Assembly (NCBI GenBank): GCA_024707145.1 | Contig: JANQAI010000001.1 | Span: 64,501-128,500, forward strand | Source of the DNA: Magnetospirillum sp. | GTDB taxonomy: Bacteria > Pseudomonadota > Alphaproteobacteria > Rhodospirillales > Magnetospirillaceae | Reading direction: 5' to 3' | DNA length: 64,000 nt | In this document: in pieces, positions 12,193 through 19,110 of the stretch | How positions within the stretch are numbered: the stretch's first letter is position 1 | Layout of the letters: each line of letters opens with the position of its first letter | Notes under the pieces: generated by a model | Told to the model about the DNA's origin: nothing | The model's database searches: none | What the model saw: the letters and a program-made list of their open reading frames with translations, nothing else | Translations under genes and position numbers: made by a program

Positions 12193-13203
12193 TTACTTGG
12201 CCTTTTCGTCCAGACGCTTGCCGAACGACACCGCGTAGGCGGCGGAGCGGTAGGCCAGGATGGCGTCGGGCGACGGCTCGACCCCCGCACTCAGTACGTT
12301 GGGATCGAAGTTGATGTCCTCGCACTGGCCCACGGCGTCGTTGCCGGCGCGGGTCAGAGTCAGGGTGCCCACCTTGACTTCCTTACGTTGGGCCGGCCAG
12401 GCCACGGCGGGATTGTCGATGGGATCGCCGGGCTCGCCCAGGCTGACCACCATGTCCCACTGGACCGGGCTCTTGCGGGTCCGCTCGGTGATGCGCTGGA
12501 CCAGGAAATCCTTGGGCAGGCTGTTCAGTTCCTCGTCGCTGAGGAAGTGGACGCCGTCGCGGGGTTCGAACCGCCACTTGACCCAGCGCTCGTGCTTGGC
12601 GCCGTCGATGAACTTGAAGGCGTTGAGGCTGTGATAGGCGGTCTCGGCGAAGGACGGCGGCGGGTTGTGGCTGGCCAGCCAGTCACCCTGTCCCTTGCTG
12701 TCGGGGAACTTGGCCTTGTAGGCCGCCAATTTCTCGGGATCGCGCTTGCCGGTGGCGGGATCGGGAATGTCGGCCAATTGACGCTGGTAAAAGCTTTCCA
12801 CCGTGGCGGCACCGAACACCGGCGTGTTCAGCATCGCCATCTGGTGCAGTTCGCCGTTGGGCAACTGGAACTGCAAGGCCAGGGCGCGCGGGTTGCGGGT
12901 GGTGTCGGGCACCGCCGGATTGGGGCCGGCCAGCGAGAAGCGGGCGATCACCGGGACCGCCTGGCCGGAAAACAGTTGCGACGAACTCAGCGACTTGGCT
13001 GCCTCGGTGGCCTGGAAGCTGCCGACCGCGCAGGTCCCCTTGGCATGGTTGCGGCGCAGGCCGGCATGGACACCGGAAATCTTTTCCAGCGCGCCGACCA
13101 CGTCCTCGGGCGCCGGCTCGTCGCCGGCCAGGGCGGAACCCAGCGGCAGGGCCAGGCCCAGTGCGGTCAGAGCGGCCAAATGGCGGAATGCGGGAAAGCG
13201 CAT
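12193..13203 (-). CDS. Periplasmic catalase-related peroxidase (SrpA-like)
   Basis: A 336-residue protein with a Sec signal ([19 protein letters not shown]). It matches the small catalase-related family: [18 protein letters not shown] near the N-terminus is the distal haem-side motif, and [15 protein letters not shown] at the C-terminus contains the expected proximal tyrosine. These proteins are shorter than true catalases, are secreted, and usually act as haem peroxidases. It sits beside msrA, dipZ-like and msrB, which fits a role in removing oxidants in the cell envelope. Confidence 0.88.
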
Positions 13204-13287
13204 GATCCCCTCTCTCTCTAGGTGATTATGGATATTGGTTCAGGTGACATACGCCGCAGGGCGGCGGCTTATTCCCGGGGGAACGGA

Positions 13288-13981
13288 TTATTTTCGGGCC
13301 GGCGACACCAGGACCGCCTGCTCGCGGTAGCGGGCGGGAAACAACCGCTTGAGGTCGGCGATCTTGGGCAGGTCGTAGGTGGTGATGTAGGGCAGGGCGG
13401 GATTGTGCGTCAGGAAGTCCTGGTGATAATCCTCGGCCGGGAAGAAGCGGGTGCCGGTTTCGACGCGGGTGGCGATGGGCTGGGCGAAGGCGTGGACGCC
13501 GTCGAGCTGGGCAATGTAGTCGCGGGCCACCCGCTCCTGTTCCGGCGAACGCGGGAAGATGGCGGAACGGTATTGGGGACCGACATCCGGCTCCTGGCGG
13601 TCGAGCCTGGGTGGGGTCGTGGGCGACGGAGAAGAAGATCTGCAGCAGCGTGCCGTAGGACACCTGGGTCGGGTCGAAGGTGATCTCGACCGATTCGGCA
13701 TGTCGCGTGCGGCCACTGGAAACCGTCTCGTACTGCGCCGTCTCGGCGGTGCCGCCGGCATAGCCCGACACCACCTGGTTGACGCCCTGGACGTGTTGGA
13801 ACACCCCCTGCACGCCCCAGAAGCAGCCTCCGGCCAGCACGGCGGTTTCGCTGTGGCTGGAACCGGCCGCTTGGTCGCGGGCGGGAGGCGCCACCAGGAC
13901 GGTGGTCTCGGCCCGGGCGGGGGCCTGCCACAGCAGCAGGCCGGCAAGGGCAACGAACAAGGGCTTGGCGGTCATGGACAT
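13288..13981 (-). CDS. msrA: Exported peptide-methionine (S)-S-oxide reductase MsrA (one frameshift)
   Basis: Repairs the S-epimer of oxidised methionine. A Sec signal ([17 protein letters not shown]) marks a periplasmic form. The catalytic motif [15 protein letters not shown] is present, followed by SGYAGG and the usual MsrA core. Near 13607 one extra base shifts the frame between AHDPTQ and [17 protein letters not shown], and the second frame runs to the stop at 13288. Removing one G restores a protein of about 230 residues. Probably a sequencing error. It is the last gene of the msrB, dipZ-like, msrA run. Confidence 0.88.
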
Positions 13982-14014: not shown

Positions 14015-15718
14015 TCAGCCGAAGGTGAAGGCGTAGGCGGCGGCGCCGGGGTCGAGGAATTCGATGGCGAAGGTATGGTCGGACACCACGCCCGGCTGGC
14101 GGACCAGCTGGTAAAGCCGTTGCTCGGTTACCGTGCCGCTGCCGTCGGCGGCGACGTCGGTGCCGTGGGCGTCGCCGGGGGCGGCGCCGTCGATGGTGAC
14201 CTTGAAGCGCACCGGCTTGCCGTCGGCTCCGGGCCCCAGCACCAGATGCAGGTCGCGGGCGTGGAAGCGGTAGATGATGCGTCCGCCGGCAGTGGTGGAT
14301 TGTGAGCGTTCCCCCTCGATGCGCCACGTGCCGGTCAGTCCCCACTCGTCCAGTGCCAGGGTGCTGGGCAGTGCATAGTCGGTGACGGTGTCGGGCCGTG
14401 CCGGGGCCGAGGCGAAACGCTCGCCCCGCTGGTATCCCAGATAGGTTTCGGGCGAGCGGATGTCCTCGCCGGCGGCGGCCTGCTGCACGCCCTGGCCGCT
14501 GACGGCGGCGGCATCGGTGGCGATTCCGGCGGCGCCGGCCTCGCGCAGCAGGTCCTGGATCACTCGTTCGGACTGGGCGTACTCACCCTCGCCGAAATGG
14601 CGATGGCGGACGCGGCCCTGGGCGTCGATGAAATAGTGCGCCGGCCAGTACTGGTTGCCGAACGCGGTCCAGATGGCGAAATCGTTGTCGAGCGCCACCG
14701 GATAGGTGATGCCGAACTGGCGGATGGCGCGGGCGACGTTGTCCGGGTCGCGTTCGAAGGCGAATTCGGGGGCGTGCACACCGACCACCACCAGCCCCTG
14801 GTCGCGGTACTTCTCGGCCCAGGCCTTCACATAGGGCAGGGTACGCAGGCAGTTGATGCAGGAATAGGTCCAGAAATCCACCAGTACCACCTTGCCCTTC
14901 AGGTCGGCGGCGGTCAGTGGCGGGGAATTCAGCCATTGCACCGCGCCGTCGAGGGAGGGGGCCGGGCCTTCCACCGGCAGGTTCGCCGCCGTGTCGCGCC
15001 GGGCAAGGCGATTCACCAGGCGCTGCTCCAGTTCAGCGGTGGAGGCGGTGGACAGATTGGCCAGCAGGCCGGTGTCGAGGCCCAGGGTGATGGCGGCGAC
15101 CCCGGCCAGCATGGCCGCACCCAAGGCCCGGCGAATCCACTCGCCGACACCCAGCGACCGTTTCATGGCGGCGAACACCCGCCCGCCCACCAGCAGCGCC
15201 AGGGCCAAGGATGTCGCCGCCCCTGCGCCATAGGCCAGCAGCAGCAGCGCGGTGCCGGCCGAGGCGCCGTGCAGCGCCGCCCCGGTCAGGACCAGCCCCA
15301 GGATCGGCCCGGCACACGGCGCCCACAGCAAGCCGGTGGCGATGCCCAGCAGGAAGGCGGCGCCGGGATGTCCCCGGCCACGGGACTGCGCCGTTTCCGA
15401 CAGTCGCGCTCCGGCGGCGACCAGCGGCTGGGTCAGCCGTTCGGCCAAGCCGGGCAGCAGCAGGGCCAACGCGAACACGGCCATCAGCGCCAACGCCGCC
15501 CAGCGGCCGGCCTGATTGGCCGCCACCACCCAGCCGCCGCCGATGGCAGCGGCCGTGGCGACGGCGGCGAAGGTCGTCGCCATGCCCGCCAGGAGCGGCA
15601 GGCCGGAGCGGACGAAGGGCTGATCGGCGCGGGCGAAGACAAACGGCAACACCGGCAGGATGCAGGGGCTGAGGATGGTCAGGGCGCCACCCAGATAGGA
15701 CAGCAGGAACAGCAACAT
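14015..15718 (-). CDS. DipZ-type thiol-reductant transporter with thioredoxin domain
   Basis: A 567-residue protein from the ATG at 15718. Residues 1-240 are a CcdA/DsbD-like membrane domain with paired cysteines (LSPCILPVLPFV and LLWAPCAGPILGL) in about six helices. A thioredoxin-like domain follows, with redox motif SCINCLRTLPYVKAWAE, then a C-terminal domain typical of DipZ proteins. It would carry electrons across the inner membrane to periplasmic thiol enzymes. Lying between msrB and msrA, the likely clients are those two reductases. Positional inference only for the partner. Confidence 0.88.
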   Translation of the reverse strand: MLLFLLSYLGGALTILSPCILPVLPFVFARADQPFVRSGLPLLAGMATTFAAVATAAAIGGGWVVAANQAGRWAALALMAVFALALLLPGLAERLTQPLVAAGARLSETAQSRGRGHPGAAFLLGIATGLLWAPCAGPILGLVLTGAALHGASAGTALLLLAYGAGAATSLALALLVGGRVFAAMKRSLGVGEWIRRALGAAMLAGVAAITLGLDTGLLANLSTASTAELEQRLVNRLARRDTAANLPVEGPAPSLDGAVQWLNSPPLTAADLKGKVVLVDFWTYSCINCLRTLPYVKAWAEKYRDQGLVVVGVHAPEFAFERDPDNVARAIRQFGITYPVALDNDFAIWTAFGNQYWPAHYFIDAQGRVRHRHFGEGEYAQSERVIQDLLREAGAAGIATDAAAVSGQGVQQAAAGEDIRSPETYLGYQRGERFASAPARPDTVTDYALPSTLALDEWGLTGTWRIEGERSQSTTAGGRIIYRFHARDLHLVLGPGADGKPVRFKVTIDGAAPGDAHGTDVAADGSGTVTEQRLYQLVRQPGVVSDHTFAIEFLDPGAAAYAFTFG

Positions 15719-15737: not shown

Positions 15738-16229
15738 TCAGGCCTGGCCGGGGGCGAAGAGCAGCGCAAGGCCGTTCATGCAGTAGCGCAGGCCGGTGGG
15801 CTGGGGGCCATCGTCGAAGACGTGGCCGAGATGGCTGCCGCAACGGGCGCAATGCACCTCGGTGCGCACCATGCCGAAGGAGGTGTCGGTGCGCTCGCCG
15901 ACCGCGCCGGGGAGTGGTTCCCAGAAGCTGGGCCAGCCGGTGCGGCTGTCGAACTTGGCGGCGGACGAGAACAGCTTGTGGCCGCAGCCGGCGCAGGCGA
16001 AGGTGCCGGTACGGTGTTCGGCGTTCAGCGGGCTGGAATAGGGAGGTTCGGTGCCTTCCTCGCGCAGGATGTGGTACTGCGTCGGGGCCAGCCGTTGCCG
16101 CCATACGGAGTCGCTGAGGGTGACGGGGAAGGTTTCGGTGGCCGTGGCAGGCCGGACAAGGCGTGTCGTCAGGCCGCCGCCCAGGGCGAGGGCGCTGCCG
16201 GCAATCAGGAAGGAACGTCGCGACGTCAT
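15738..16229 (-). CDS. msrB: Peptide-methionine (R)-S-oxide reductase MsrB, Tat-exported
   Basis: Repairs the R-epimer of oxidised methionine. A 163-residue protein with a twin-arginine leader (TSRRSFLIAGSALALGGG), so it acts outside the cytoplasm like the adjacent MsrA. Zinc pairs are CAGCGHKLF and CARCGSHLGHVF; the catalytic cysteine lies in GLRYCMNGLAL, where most family members read RYCIN. First gene of the msrB, dipZ-like, msrA operon. Its upstream region holds the 38-base element described at 16281-16318. Confidence 0.92.
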   Translation of the reverse strand: MTSRRSFLIAGSALALGGGLTTRLVRPATATETFPVTLSDSVWRQRLAPTQYHILREEGTEPPYSSPLNAEHRTGTFACAGCGHKLFSSAAKFDSRTGWPSFWEPLPGAVGERTDTSFGMVRTEVHCARCGSHLGHVFDDGPQPTGLRYCMNGLALLFAPGQA

Positions 16230-16280
16230 CGTGTCCTCGCGGAACGGGAAGGGGGATGACGTCAGGCTAGGGGCGTTCCG

Positions 16281-16318
16281 GTGGCGAAGTCCTCACGGAG
16301 AGTTAAACAAATCGTGAT
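16281..16318 (-). promoter_or_regulatory. Shared 38-base upstream element, msrB copy
   Basis: Read on the minus strand towards msrB, this element begins ATCACGATTTGTTTAACTCT. It matches the element at 18561-18598 at 32 of 38 positions and has the same orientation relative to its downstream gene. It lies between the msrB start and the stop of the histidine kinase. Two such copies facing two related genes suggest a common operator or promoter, probably for the response regulator encoded next door. Confidence 0.65.
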
Positions 16319-16320
16319 GC

Positions 16321-17783
16321 TCAAACGGGGAGATCGAAGCGGAACACGGCACCGCGGCCGGGTTCGTCGGCTGCCGTCACCGTTTCGCCGTGCAGGGCGA
16401 GGATCCGCTGCACCACCACCAGCCCCAGGCCGCCGCTGTGGCGAAGGTCGCGCCCGAAGGCCGAGGCGCGGGTGAACAGGCCGGCGCGCAAGGCGGCGGG
16501 AATGCCAGGGCCGTCGTCGGCCACTTCCACCTCGACGGCCTGTCCCTTGGGGCGCAGGGTGACGGTGATATGGGTGCCGTCGGGGGTGTGGCGGGCGGCA
16601 TTGTCGATCAGGTTGGTCAGCACCCGTTCGATCATGCCCAGGTCGGCGCGTACCGGCGGCAACGACGGCGGGATGTCGATGTCCAGGGTCTGGCGGCGGG
16701 CCGCCAGGACCAACTCGAACTTCTGTGCCACGTCCTGGACCAAGTCGGGCAGCGAAAACGTCTCCATCTCCGGCTGCACCAGCCCGGACTCCAGCCGCGC
16801 CAGTTCGAACAGTTCCTGGGCGAGGCGGCCGACCTTGCCGCTTTGCTCCAACGCGATGTCGAGATAGCGCCGCCGTTCCTCGGCCCCTAGGGCGTCCCCC
16901 TTCAGCTTCAGGGTTTCCAGATAGCCGTGCAACGAGGTCAGCGGCGTGCGCAGGTCATGTGAGATGTTGGCGATCAGTTCGCGGCGCTGCTGGTCCTGGC
17001 GGGACAGGTCGCGCCATTGTTCGCCGATGCGCCGGCCCATCTGGGCGAAGGCGGCGCGCAGCACGTCGATCTCGTCGCCGCTTCGGGAGAGGGAGGTTCC
17101 GGGGGCCAGGGTGGCGGCCATTTCGCCGTTGGCGTCGAAGTCGCGCACCGCCTTGGCCAGGGTGCGCAACGGCCGGGTGATCAGGCGAAACGACAGCAGG
17201 CCCATACCCAATCCCAGCAGGACGACCAGGGCGGAAATCCACAGCGTGGTGCGCAGCACCGCATCGTTGGCCAACCGCGTGGCCAGGGCGTGGCGGGCTT
17301 CTCCCTCCAGGATGACGTAGACGTAGCCGGCTTGGCGGTCGTCCATCAGCACCGGCGCGGCCCTGAACACCTTCCTTGAGGCCGAAGTGCGGGGATCGTC
17401 GCCCAATATCGGCAGCGCGGCGCCGGCCAGCAATCGGCGGACGGGTTCCAGGTCCACCCGGTCGCGCTTCAGATGGCCGGGGGCGCGGCGTTGCCGACGA
17501 TGCGGCCGTCGTTGTCGAGCAGGTACACCTCTACCGAGGGGTTGACCGCCATCAGGTTGTCGAACAGGGCGCAGATCGAATCGGGGCGCCAGCCGTCACG
17601 GTCCATCAACTGCGCGGTGCCGGCGATGTGGCCGGCCAATCCGATGGACAACTGCTGGGCCAGCGCCTGTTCATGGCGCATGCTGGAATGGATCTGCAGG
17701 GCCACGGAAGCGGCGCTGCACGCCAAAAGCAGGGCGGCGAAAGCCAGCGACAGACGCTGGGCCAGGGGCAGGCGCTTCATCAC
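16321..17783 (-). CDS. Two-component sensor histidine kinase (one frameshift)
   Basis: N-terminal membrane helix (LSLAFAALLLACSAASVAL), a periplasmic sensor of about 120 residues, a second helix (LWISALVVLLGLGMGLLSF), HAMP, HisKA with phospho-acceptor histidine in ELIANISHDLRTPLTSL, and a HATPase domain with DNAARHTPDGTHI and DDGPGIP. The frame breaks near 17468, where restoring one G joins GNAAPP to GHLKRDRVDLEPV, giving about 487 residues. Its start overlaps the response-regulator stop (ATGA). Placement beside msr and MXKDX genes suggests it senses an envelope oxidant; the signal itself is not visible. Confidence 0.88.
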
Positions 17784-18502
17784 GGCTCCCCGCCGCCGGG
17801 GTTGGCGGCGAATTTATAGCCGCGCCCCCAGACGGTCAGGATACGTTTGGGAGCCGCCGGATTGGCTTCGATCTTGGCGCGCAGGCGGTTGATGTGGGTG
17901 TTGACGGTGTGTTCGTAGCCGTCATGGCTATAGCCCCAGACCTCGTTGAGCAGTTGCAGGCGTGAAAACGCTCGCTCGGGGTGGCGGGCGAAGAAATACA
18001 GCAGGTCGAATTCCCGTGGCGTCAGGTCGAGAAGATGGCCCCCCAGCCGCGCCTCGCGCGCCAGCGGGTCCAGCGTCAGGCCGTGGCATTCCAGTTGCCC
18101 GGCCTCGATGCGGGCGTTGCGGGCCAGGGCGTCGCTCCGGCGCAGCAGGGCCTTGGCGCGTGCCGCCAGTTCCAGCATGGAGAACGGTTTCGCCAGGTAG
18201 TCATCGGCGCCCAATTCCAGGCCGAGGATGCGGTGCACTTCGCTGGAGCGCGCGCTGATGATGATGATCGGCACGTAATGGGCCATGGTGCGGGCGCGTT
18301 TGCAGATTTCCAGCCCATCGATTCCGGGCAGCATCAGGTCGAGTACCAGCAGGTCCCATTGCCCCATTTGCAGCAGGCGCATGCCGGCATCGCCATCGGC
18401 GGCGTGCTCGACGGCGAAGCCCTCTTCGGCCAGATGCAGGCGCAGCAGTTCGGCGATATGGGCGTCGTCCTCGACGACCAGGACACGTTTGGTCCGTTCC
18501 AT
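17780..18502 (-). CDS. OmpR-family response regulator
   Basis: 240 residues from ATG at 18502. A receiver domain with acidic pair EDD, phospho-acceptor aspartate in LLVLDLMLPGIDG and conserved lysine in YLAKPFSMLEL is followed by an OmpR/PhoB winged helix (DLTPREFDLLYFFARHPERAF, HTVNTHINRLRAKIE). It overlaps the kinase by four bases. Upstream, facing the other way, is the MXKDX gene, and the gap carries the 38-base element, so this protein is the natural candidate to bind it and to regulate itself. Confidence 0.93.
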   Translation of the reverse strand: MERTKRVLVVEDDAHIAELLRLHLAEEGFAVEHAADGDAGMRLLQMGQWDLLVLDLMLPGIDGLEICKRARTMAHYVPIIIISARSSEVHRILGLELGADDYLAKPFSMLELAARAKALLRRSDALARNARIEAGQLECHGLTLDPLAREARLGGHLLDLTPREFDLLYFFARHPERAFSRLQLLNEVWGYSHDGYEHTVNTHINRLRAKIEANPAAPKRILTVWGRGYKFAANPGGGEP

Positions 18503-18560
18503 CGGGGCTCCTCGGCGGGATGGCGTGCTCCATTGTCCTCCATTCCCGAGCGTTTCAGGA

Positions 18561-18598
18561 ATCACGAATTGTTTAACTCTCTGCGAGGATTTGGCGAC
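18561..18598 (+). promoter_or_regulatory. Shared 38-base upstream element, MXKDX copy
   Basis: Reads ATCACGAATTGTTTAACTCT at its start and points to the MXKDX gene at 18673. It matches the msrB copy at 16281-16318 (minus strand) at 32 of 38 positions. It also lies upstream of the divergent response-regulator gene, so it may act on both. Whether it is a regulator-binding site or an alternative-sigma promoter cannot be settled from two copies. Confidence 0.65.
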
Positions 18599-18672
18599 CG
18601 GCGGCGACCGAGATTGGGCGGCGTGGCAAGGGCATGCGCACCTTGCCGGCCTGACCATTCGAGGAAAAAGCC

Positions 18673-18960
18673 ATGAACGCCGTCGTCTCCACCATCTTGT
18701 CCGTGTCCCTCTGCCTGGGGGTGGCCGTGGCCGGTGCCTATGCCATCGAAACCATCGGCAAGGGGACTGTGTCCCGTGACGCCACGGGCAAGGCTGCCAT
18801 GCCCACCGGCACCATGAGCCGGACCGCCCCGCCGGTCGGCACCATGGCGAAGGATGCGATGGTCCCCCGCGCCATGACCGGGGACGCCATGACTCGGAAT
18901 GTTCCGCCGAGCGGCGCCATGGTCAAGGACGCCATGAAAAAGGACGCCCAGGCCCGCTAG
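18673..18960 (+). CDS. Exported Met-rich MXKDX-repeat peptide
   Basis: 95 residues. A Sec signal (about 1-24, SVSLCLGVAVAGAYA) is followed by a low-complexity mature part of about 70 residues with eight methionines in loosely repeated units such as TMAKDAMVP, AMTGDAM and AMVKDAMKKDA. This is the pentapeptide MXKDX-repeat family, of unproven function. Such peptides could act as sacrificial methionine sinks for oxidants, recycled by periplasmic Msr enzymes, as described for MrpX in Azospira. Shared upstream element and location with msrA/msrB support that reading, which remains inference. Confidence 0.85.
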   Translation: MNAVVSTILSVSLCLGVAVAGAYAIETIGKGTVSRDATGKAAMPTGTMSRTAPPVGTMAKDAMVPRAMTGDAMTRNVPPSGAMVKDAMKKDAQAR

Positions 18961-18975
18961 GCCGGGAGAGACCGC

Positions 18976-19110
18976 ATGGCCTCGGAACGATCGCAGTTGT
19001 TGGCGGAGATTCCCCATCTGCGCCGCTACGCCCGCGCCTTGCTGCAAGATCCCTGGACCGAGGACGATCTGGTGCAAAGCAGCCTGGAGCGGGCCTTGAA
19101 GGCGATCCCT
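18976..19110 (+). pseudogene. ECF sigma factor, N-terminal remnant
   Basis: The first 42 or so codons (IPHLRRYARALLQDPWTEDD, then VQSSLERALK) match region 2 of ECF sigma factors. After about 19105 the similarity stops and the frame continues as nonsense into the convergent xdhC locus. The rest of region 2 and all of region 4 are absent, so it cannot be functional. It starts 16 bases after the MXKDX stop, suggesting the original order MXKDX-sigma. The break probably marks a deletion or rearrangement joint. Confidence 0.7.

What the first reader, a model, noticed from the sequence alone, without database searches (positions are those of the whole stretch)
16281..18598. One 38-base element precedes both msrB and the Met-rich MXKDX gene
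16281-16318 (minus) and 18561-18598 (plus) match at 32 of 38 positions and each points to its downstream gene, msrB or the MXKDX peptide. The elements bracket a complete two-component system. This suggests one regulon with a sensor-regulator, two exported methionine sulfoxide reductases, a DipZ-like electron supplier, and an exported Met-rich peptide that could be their renewable substrate.
Basis: partly seen in the sequence, partly recalled or inferred. Interest (0 to 1): 0.75.

Follow-up and report, generated by a model that had tools for sequence, protein, structure and literature searches.

The report
Shared switch for envelope methionine repair
A short DNA switch lies in front of two neighbouring gene sets for repairing oxidised methionine outside the cell membrane; the same switch recurs in other Proteobacteria that carry the same sensor-regulator pair, almost always in front of such repair genes.

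Summary
The two 38-base elements match at 32 of 38 positions, and their core (up to 3 mismatches) occurs nowhere else in the 5.14 Mb genome. A longer pattern found it in 7 of 697 genomes, exactly the 7 of 55 family genomes that carry an orthologue of the adjacent sensor kinase. Five family genomes with msrB-dipZ but no such kinase lack it. In 25 kinase-bearing genomes a 36-base pattern gave 24 places, each before msrB, an MXKDX gene or a cytochrome b(/MsrP-like) gene, some unlinked to the kinase. The element is homologous to the promoter stretch bound in vitro by OrhR of E. coli CFT073 (PMC8550376, passages). Invariant bases recur every 11 bp (A3, A14, A25, A36) and a -10-like hexamer follows. 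I read it as tandem half-sites of an OrhR-type response regulator that activates envelope methionine-sulfoxide repair. New compared with the OrhKR paper: the thiol-based MsrB-DipZ-MsrA module under this operator, and the operator's conservation across Proteobacteria. Binding, inducer and the peptide's sacrificial role are not shown here.

The parts
16281..16318 (-). OrhR-type operator before msrB (TCACGATTTGTTTAACTCTCCGTGAGGACTTCGCCAC, from base 16317 down)
16264..16269 (-). -10-like hexamer TAGCCT of the msrB promoter at positions 49-54 of the site
18561..18598 (+). OrhR-type operator before the MXKDX gene, in the MXKDX/regulator intergenic region
18610..18615 (+). -10-like hexamer GAGATT of the MXKDX promoter at positions 49-54 of the site
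17780..18502 (-). OrhR-like response regulator (receiver plus Trans_reg_C), 57.8% identical to E. coli CFT073 OrhR over 237 residues
16321..17783 (-). OrhK-like sensor histidine kinase, split in two frames (17469-17783 and 16321-17457) in this assembly
15738..16229 (-). msrB, exported methionine-R-sulfoxide reductase (twin-arginine-like N terminus, judged by eye)
14015..15718 (-). DipZ-like DsbD_TM plus thioredoxin-like protein, proposed electron supplier
13226..13981 (-). msrA, Sec-like N terminus (by eye); frame breaks after about residue 127
12193..13203 (-). catalase-family protein with signal-like N terminus (by eye), next gene in the same direction; no match in the relative loci searched with it
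18673..18960 (+). Met-rich MXKDX-type exported peptide (95 aa, 9 Met), just under its family cut-off

Best explanation
The element is the operator-promoter of an OrhKR-type two-component system. On oxidative damage in the envelope, the sensor kinase phosphorylates the OmpR/PhoB-type regulator encoded next to it. The regulator binds head-to-tail to 11-bp half-sites in the element (invariant A at 3, 14, 25 and 36), lying where a -35 box would be, and activates a promoter whose -10 hexamer sits at positions 49-54. In the window this drives msrB-dipZ-msrA (thiol-based repair of methionine sulfoxide, electrons via DipZ) and a Met-rich MXKDX peptide that probably acts as an oxidant sink recycled by the Msr enzymes. 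In relatives the same operator drives a cytochrome b561/MsrP-like molybdoenzyme operon instead of, or besides, the thiol module. Shown here: conservation, placement, co-occurrence with the kinase, promoter geometry, homology to the OrhR-bound region. Inferred: binding, activation, inducer, sink role.
For: Only 2 copies in the own genome. Family: element in 7 of 55 genomes (13 places, control 0), kinase orthologue in the same 7 of 55; the other 262 order genomes and 380 further class genomes have none. 5 of 5 family genomes with msrB-dipZ but no kinase: best match in the stretches fetched 8 to 10 mismatches of 25. Of 18 further kinase orthologues among 398 phylum genomes, 14 have a site with 5 or fewer mismatches before a divergent msrB (8) or cytochrome b gene (6); the 4 without such a neighbour in the held flank have 6 or 9 mismatches or no match within 9. 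24 of 24 pattern places in 25 kinase genomes at methionine-redox genes, including two outside the family on another contig or 770 kb from the kinase gene. 28 dereplicated sites: 12 invariant positions within 1-36, plus A50 28 of 28 and T54 26 of 28, the last two outside the search pattern; the two unlinked sites found later keep A50 and T54 too. All 12 positions kept at the CFT073 promoter bound by OrhR in EMSA (PMC8550376, passages). Recognition helix HTVNTHINRLR identical in all 30 orthologues aligned.
Against: No binding or expression data for this organism. The published EMSA used a 260-nt fragment, so the exact site is deduced there. The authors read an inverted repeat (TCACA-N15-TGTGA); I read tandem repeats, and the period-11 test is only moderate (30 of 5000 permutations; period 12 gave 41, period 10 gave 122). 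In CFT073 positions 33, 50 and 54 differ; a CATAAT lies one base closer. One of the two unlinked later sites loses T11. The recognition helix is also kept in 7 of 10 outer regulators without this site, so it does not by itself explain specificity. Two MsrP-like paralogues in kinase genomes carry no element in the flanks held. The kinase frame is broken in the assembly. Sites were collected with the pattern, which inflates conservation at positions 1-30. The window's MXKDX peptide is Met-poorer (8 Met in 70 residues after position 25) than four relatives (11-13 in 57-64).
Confidence: 0.9

Rival explanations
1. The element is a promoter for an alternative (ECF) sigma factor, as in the ECF16-type BcrS or SigF systems that drive Met-rich peptide genes, not a response-regulator site.
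For: MXKDX genes are known ECF16 targets (PMC8315932, passages), and a truncated ECF-like sigma gene follows MXKDX in the window (18976-19110).
Against: The BcrS sites printed in that paper (GTAAC ... CGAA) do not resemble the element. The sigma fragment found no match in the relative loci, while the kinase tracks the element 7 of 7. The site is long and has a sigma-70-like -10 behind it.
Confidence: 0.04
2. The copies are conserved only because whole gene blocks were inherited or moved together; the similarity is synteny, not function.
For: Regulator, kinase and targets are close together in most of these genomes; within its own genus only 1 of 13 genomes has the system.
Against: The element recurs before non-homologous targets (msrB, MXKDX, cytochrome b) and at unlinked places (G031 contig C5, G989 770 kb away, G1030 other contig), while most flanking positions carry little information.
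Confidence: 0.02
3. The element is an operator of this regulator but represses, or serves mainly to autoregulate the two-component genes; target control is by another factor.
For: The divergent copy lies upstream of the regulator gene too. In five loci with no repair or MXKDX gene found next to the regulator (L042, L067, L094, L098, L100) the left half (positions 1-4, 11, 12, 14, 15) is kept while 2 to 4 of the right-half positions are lost, as if the left half also served the regulator's own promoter.
Against: The full site is oriented to the targets with a -10 at near-fixed spacing; copies unlinked to the kinase exist; OrhR is a positive regulator of its operon in CFT073 (PMC8550376, passages).
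Confidence: 0.04

Closest known systems
OrhK/OrhR (C3564/C3565) of uropathogenic E. coli CFT073, regulating c3566-c3568 (PMC8550376, passages seen)
   Different: The CFT073 targets are a cytochrome b/MsrP-like pair and peptide, plus a downstream toxin operon according to the paper; in the window the targets are MsrB-DipZ-MsrA and the peptide, with two operator copies. The paper describes an inverted repeat and one target promoter.
ECF16-type BcrS/AbcS with bcrXQP of Brucella (PMC8315932, passages seen) and Azospira SigF/NrsF with mrpX-yedYZ (recalled; paper not held)
   Same: Met-rich MXKDX/MrpX peptide co-regulated with a methionine-sulfoxide reductase against hypochlorous acid.
   Different: Regulator is a sigma/anti-sigma pair, not a two-component system; promoter motif differs.
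HprSR-msrPQ of E. coli K-12 (PMC12503329, passages seen)
   Same: Two-component control of an envelope methionine-sulfoxide reductase.
   Different: Window regulator scores 151.6 bits against the HprR model's cut-off of 353; enzymes here are thiol MsrA/MsrB.
Exported MsrAB/PilB-type thiol systems with DsbD or CcdA electron supply (recalled; Haemophilus MsrAB, PMC9404787, seen in search listing only)
   Same: Exported thiol-type MsrA and MsrB fed by a DsbD-like membrane protein.
   Different: Separate genes here, under an OrhR-type operator.

Membership tests
OrhKR-type two-component system | Regulator in the same clade as CFT073 OrhR | tested here: inconclusive
   The RR tree groups window and CFT073 OrhR with 28 other orthologues apart from 10 outer regulators, but support for that node is 0.63; kinase scores are bimodal (20 genomes at 625 bits or more, 36 further matches at 454 or less)
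OrhKR-type two-component system | Operator TCACR-N15-YGTGA just upstream of the target promoter | tested here: met
   Window msrB site TCACG-N15-CGTGA; the MXKDX site has CGCGA on the right; all 12 invariant positions shared with CFT073
OrhKR-type two-component system | Targets are a Met-rich peptide and a methionine-sulfoxide reductase | tested here: met
   MXKDX and MsrB-DipZ-MsrA; no MsrP-like match at E up to 1e-50 in the own genome
OrhKR-type two-component system | Direct binding and induction by oxidant | not testable with these tools
   Needs bench work
HprSR | HprR model NF008567 over its cut-off | tested here: not met
   151.6 of 353 bits
ECF16/SigF-mrpX system | Intact ECF sigma and anti-sigma beside the MXKDX gene | tested here: not met
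   Only the start of a sigma region 2 (18976-19110) follows MXKDX
TIGR02953 pentapeptide MXKDX family | Score over the curated cut-off of 41 bits | tested here: not met
   40.0 bits; of the 6 kinase genomes with a match, 4 are over the cut-off (45.7-70.5 bits), the window's (31.9) and G020's (33.2) are under it
MsrP proper (for the relatives' molybdoenzyme, L023) | NF003767 over its cut-off | tested here: not met
   76.8 of 207 bits; PF00174 met; hence 'MsrP-like'

The most novel reading that the evidence does not exclude
A two-component system and its tandem 11-bp operator form an old, Proteobacteria-wide methionine-sulfoxide regulon in which the switch stayed constant while the repair chemistry behind it was exchanged: molybdenum MsrP-like enzyme with cytochrome b in the clade of E. 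coli and Rahnella, thiol MsrB-DipZ-MsrA in the clade of Cupriavidus, both in some members of the window's family, often with a Met-rich decoy peptide that the enzymes recharge.
Probability: 0.6. Interest if true: 0.72.

Novelty: new variant of a known kind. Interest (0 to 1): 0.62.

Why it matters
A regulator so far described as a uropathogen switch (two papers in the listing, one seen in passages, one in the listing only) looks like one member of a general system for repairing oxidised methionine outside the cytoplasm. The work gives a precise, testable operator that predicts regulon members by scanning: all 24 places of the 36-base pattern in kinase-bearing genomes were at repair or MXKDX genes. 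It also ties two repair chemistries, thiol and molybdenum, to one signal.

Tried and rejected
A scan of genome contigs with one kinase fragment gave only distant kinases (6 loci, 27-35% identity), so I used genome searches instead. The 21-base pattern at 3 mismatches gave two unrelated places (G027, G063), so I moved to 30- and 36-base patterns, whose reversed controls were 0. A purely inverted-repeat reading of the element was set aside because the right arm varies (T23 in 23 of 28 sites) while A3, A14, A25 and A36 do not vary in those 28; the permutation test for 11-bp spacing is moderate, not decisive. I looked for the sigma fragment as regulator: six of its seven other places in the genus (49-68% identity over 31-41 residues) are not beside MXKDX in the roughly 1.5-kb flanks held; the seventh (L081, own genome) was not checked. 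Literature searches for the regulon under other names showed no description of an OrhR-type operator before msrB-dipZ in the rows listed; listings were capped (20 of 74, 20 of 289 and 20 of 36), and the library lacks most subscription papers. The Burkholderia preservative paper reports an msrA mutant but, in the passages seen, no link to this system (PMC7499027). The review PMC7464077 gave nothing on HprSR or MsrPQ in the passages searched.

Full report
Observation. A 21-base core with up to 3 mismatches occurs twice in the window against 0 in 100 shuffles and twice in the whole 5.14 Mb genome, reversed control 0. Each points to its gene: msrB (51 bases to the ATG) and the MXKDX gene (74 bases).

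Surroundings. On the minus strand run the response regulator (17780-18502), histidine kinase (16321-17783), the first element, msrB, a DsbD_TM/thioredoxin-like protein, msrA and a catalase-family protein; the second element and the MXKDX gene are divergent from the regulator. By eye, msrB starts with a twin-arginine-like signal, and msrA, catalase and MXKDX with Sec-like signals (no signal predictor was run). The kinase and msrA each change frame in this assembly; relatives have single frames (kinase; msrA). I treat the breaks as probable assembly errors but cannot tell.

Conservation and specificity. With a 30-base pattern at up to 3 mismatches, 13 places were found in 7 of 55 family genomes; the remaining 262 genomes of the order and 380 further genomes of the class had none, and reversed controls were 0 in all three calls. 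One more copy with 4 mismatches of 25 lies before the MXKDX-type gene in G020 (gene). Of the 14 family copies, 7 precede msrB, 5 precede an MXKDX-type gene and 2 precede a cytochrome b/MsrP-like pair, one of which is followed by MXKDX. G041 has its msrB copy but next to its regulator only a partial site, and no MXKDX match. An earlier, shorter pattern in 99 relatives gave 12 places, 2 of them unrelated, with 5 reversed-control hits, which is why the longer pattern was used.

Co-occurrence. A kinase orthologue (E up to 1e-60) is present in exactly the same 7 of 55 family genomes (at most 28 candidates were scored per genome). TIGR02953 is matched (E up to 1e-3) in 7 of 55: six of the seven kinase genomes (not G041) and, weakly (6e-4), G046. 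A dipZ homologue at E up to 1e-80 is in 11 of 55; the five that lack the kinase (G017, G028, G046, G047, G050) have msrB beside dipZ but no element, the best matches in the stretches fetched having 8 to 10 of 25 mismatches. So the element follows the two-component system, not the repair operon. An MsrP-like gene (E up to 1e-50) is in 3 of 55 genomes, four copies in all, two of which (L119, L120) show no element in the flanks held; the window genome has none.

Beyond the family. A profile of 8 kinases (the window's broken kinase not among them) searched in 398 phylum genomes gave 55 genomes at E up to 1e-110: 20 at 625 bits or more, then a gap to 454 bits (36 further matches). For the 18 orthologues not seen before, 14 have a site with 5 or fewer mismatches upstream of the regulator gene, and in these 14 the divergent gene is msrB (8, three of them from one genus and nearly identical) or a cytochrome b gene (6, two of them from one genus). 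The four others (L089, L094, L098, L100) show neither gene in the flanks held and have 6 or 9 mismatches or no match within 9. Ten of the 36 outer matches had loci (L107-L116); none gave better than 8 mismatches. Scanning all 25 kinase genomes with a 36-base pattern gave 24 places in 17 genomes, all 24 at methionine-redox or MXKDX genes. Two of these outside the family are unlinked to the kinase and lie before msrB-dipZ (G989, 770 kb away) and msrB-msrA (G1030, another contig). Eight genomes gave no place at that stringency; five of them have more diverged sites with 4 or 5 mismatches, and three are the target-less loci L094, L098 and L100. For the cytochrome b cases found in the phylum sample, the MsrP-like gene lay beyond the stretch held and was not checked.

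Identity of the system. B. pyrrocinia has the regulator pair with a degraded site and no match to the repair genes in the stretch fetched. The closest described system is OrhK/OrhR of E. coli CFT073, which controls a cytochrome b/MsrP-like/Met-rich-peptide operon, binds a 260-nt promoter fragment in EMSA, and was assigned the inverted repeat TCACA-N15-TGTGA upstream of the -35 box (PMC8550376, passages). I fetched that promoter: it reads TCACATTTTTTTTAAACTCTTGTGAGGATGTGATGAACA and keeps all 12 invariant positions of the site, but not G33, A50 or T54; a CATAAT lies one base closer. The regulator is 57.8% identical to the window's over 237 residues. In an RR tree both fall among 30 orthologues apart from 10 outer regulators, support 0.63 for that node; a tree of RR plus kinase, without CFT073, puts the window in its family's clade with support 1.0 and shows one clade (Rahnella, E. 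coli and relatives, 0.99) with cytochrome b as the only neighbour type seen.

Anatomy of the site. In 28 dereplicated sites (31 collected; L101, L104, L105 dropped as near-duplicates; CFT073, the degraded sites of L042, L067, L094, L098 and L100, and the later-found L128 and L134 not included), invariant positions are T1 C2 A3 C4, T11 T12, A14 A15, G22 G24 A25, A36, and A50; T54 is kept in 26 of 28. Positions 31 and beyond were not in the pattern used to collect these sites, so A36, A50 and T54 are free of that bias. Checked afterwards, L128 keeps 12 of 12 and L134 11 of 12 (T11 lost), both with A50 and T54. A50/T54 fit a sigma-70-type -10 hexamer at 49-54 with no consensus -35 at the matching place. 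The spacing A3-A14-A25-A36 suggests head-to-tail half-sites of 11 bp as for PhoB and OmpR (recalled), rather than a single inverted repeat; a permutation test gives 30 of 5000 for period 11, 41 for period 12 and 122 for period 10, with lag 11 the strongest autocorrelation. This is support, not proof. The five degraded sites beside regulators without a repair or MXKDX neighbour keep positions 1-4, 11, 12, 14 and 15 and lose 2 to 4 of 22, 24, 25 and 36, which may mean that the left half also serves the regulator's own promoter. The recognition helix HTVNTHINRLR is the same in all 30 orthologues, and in 7 of 10 outer regulators.

Mechanism. Most likely the kinase senses oxidative change in the envelope. 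In the 8 kinases aligned, no cysteine is invariant and one methionine is (M78 of the L023 protein, in LMxxNPxVE), a possible oxidation target, which is speculation. The regulator then activates the repair genes. DipZ as electron donor to MsrA/MsrB and the MXKDX peptide as sacrificial, recyclable sink follow from known families (MrpX as cited in PMC8550376 and PMC8315932), not from tests here. The window's peptide is a weak member: 40.0 bits against 41, with 8 methionines in 70 residues after position 25.

Novelty. The kind (two-component control of a Met-rich peptide and an Msr) is known from CFT073. New are the thiol-based module under the same operator, the conservation of the operator across Proteobacteria (named examples: Cupriavidus, Rahnella, E. 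coli; the window's own taxon is not named by any search), its predictive specificity, and the reading as tandem repeats plus -10. The rows listed showed none of this, with the limits stated under Tried and rejected.

Noticed in passing
window 18976-19110: Start of an ECF-like sigma factor (PhyR_sigma2, about 45 residues) directly after the MXKDX gene, then unrelated sequence: a truncated gene, possibly the remnant of an ECF-type regulator of MXKDX as in Brucella BcrS.
   Followed up: partly
window 17457-17469 and about 13600: The kinase and msrA reading frames each break in this assembly although relatives have single frames; the genome is rated 91.57% complete and 6.31% contaminated, so assembly error is plausible.
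   Followed up: partly
L042, L067, L094, L098, L100: Beside regulators with no repair or MXKDX gene found next door, the left half of the operator is kept and the right half decays; this may point to autoregulation through the left half.
   Followed up: partly
L107, L108, L111, L112, L113: A more distant group of two-component systems (regulator 53-56% identical) also lies near msrA and/or msrB, and in L112 near an MXKDX-like match, without this operator. L111 shows a run TCACGATTTCA-TCACGATTGCA-TGACAATTC, again with 11-bp spacing: a wider methionine-repair regulator family may exist.
   Followed up: no
genus g1 (13 genomes): Only the window genome of 13 in its genus carries the kinase and the element, which suggests horizontal gain or repeated loss.
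   Followed up: partly
E. coli genomes, hits of L068: An OrhKR-like regulator locus at 99% identity or more sits in 73 E. coli records, all 73 places on plasmids, while the distant search adds 287 chromosomal places, about 79% identical in the rows listed: two separate versions in one species.
   Followed up: no
window 12193-13203: A catalase-family protein with a signal-like N terminus follows msrA in the same direction; no match to it was found in the relative loci, so the window operon may have gained a peroxide scavenger.
   Followed up: no
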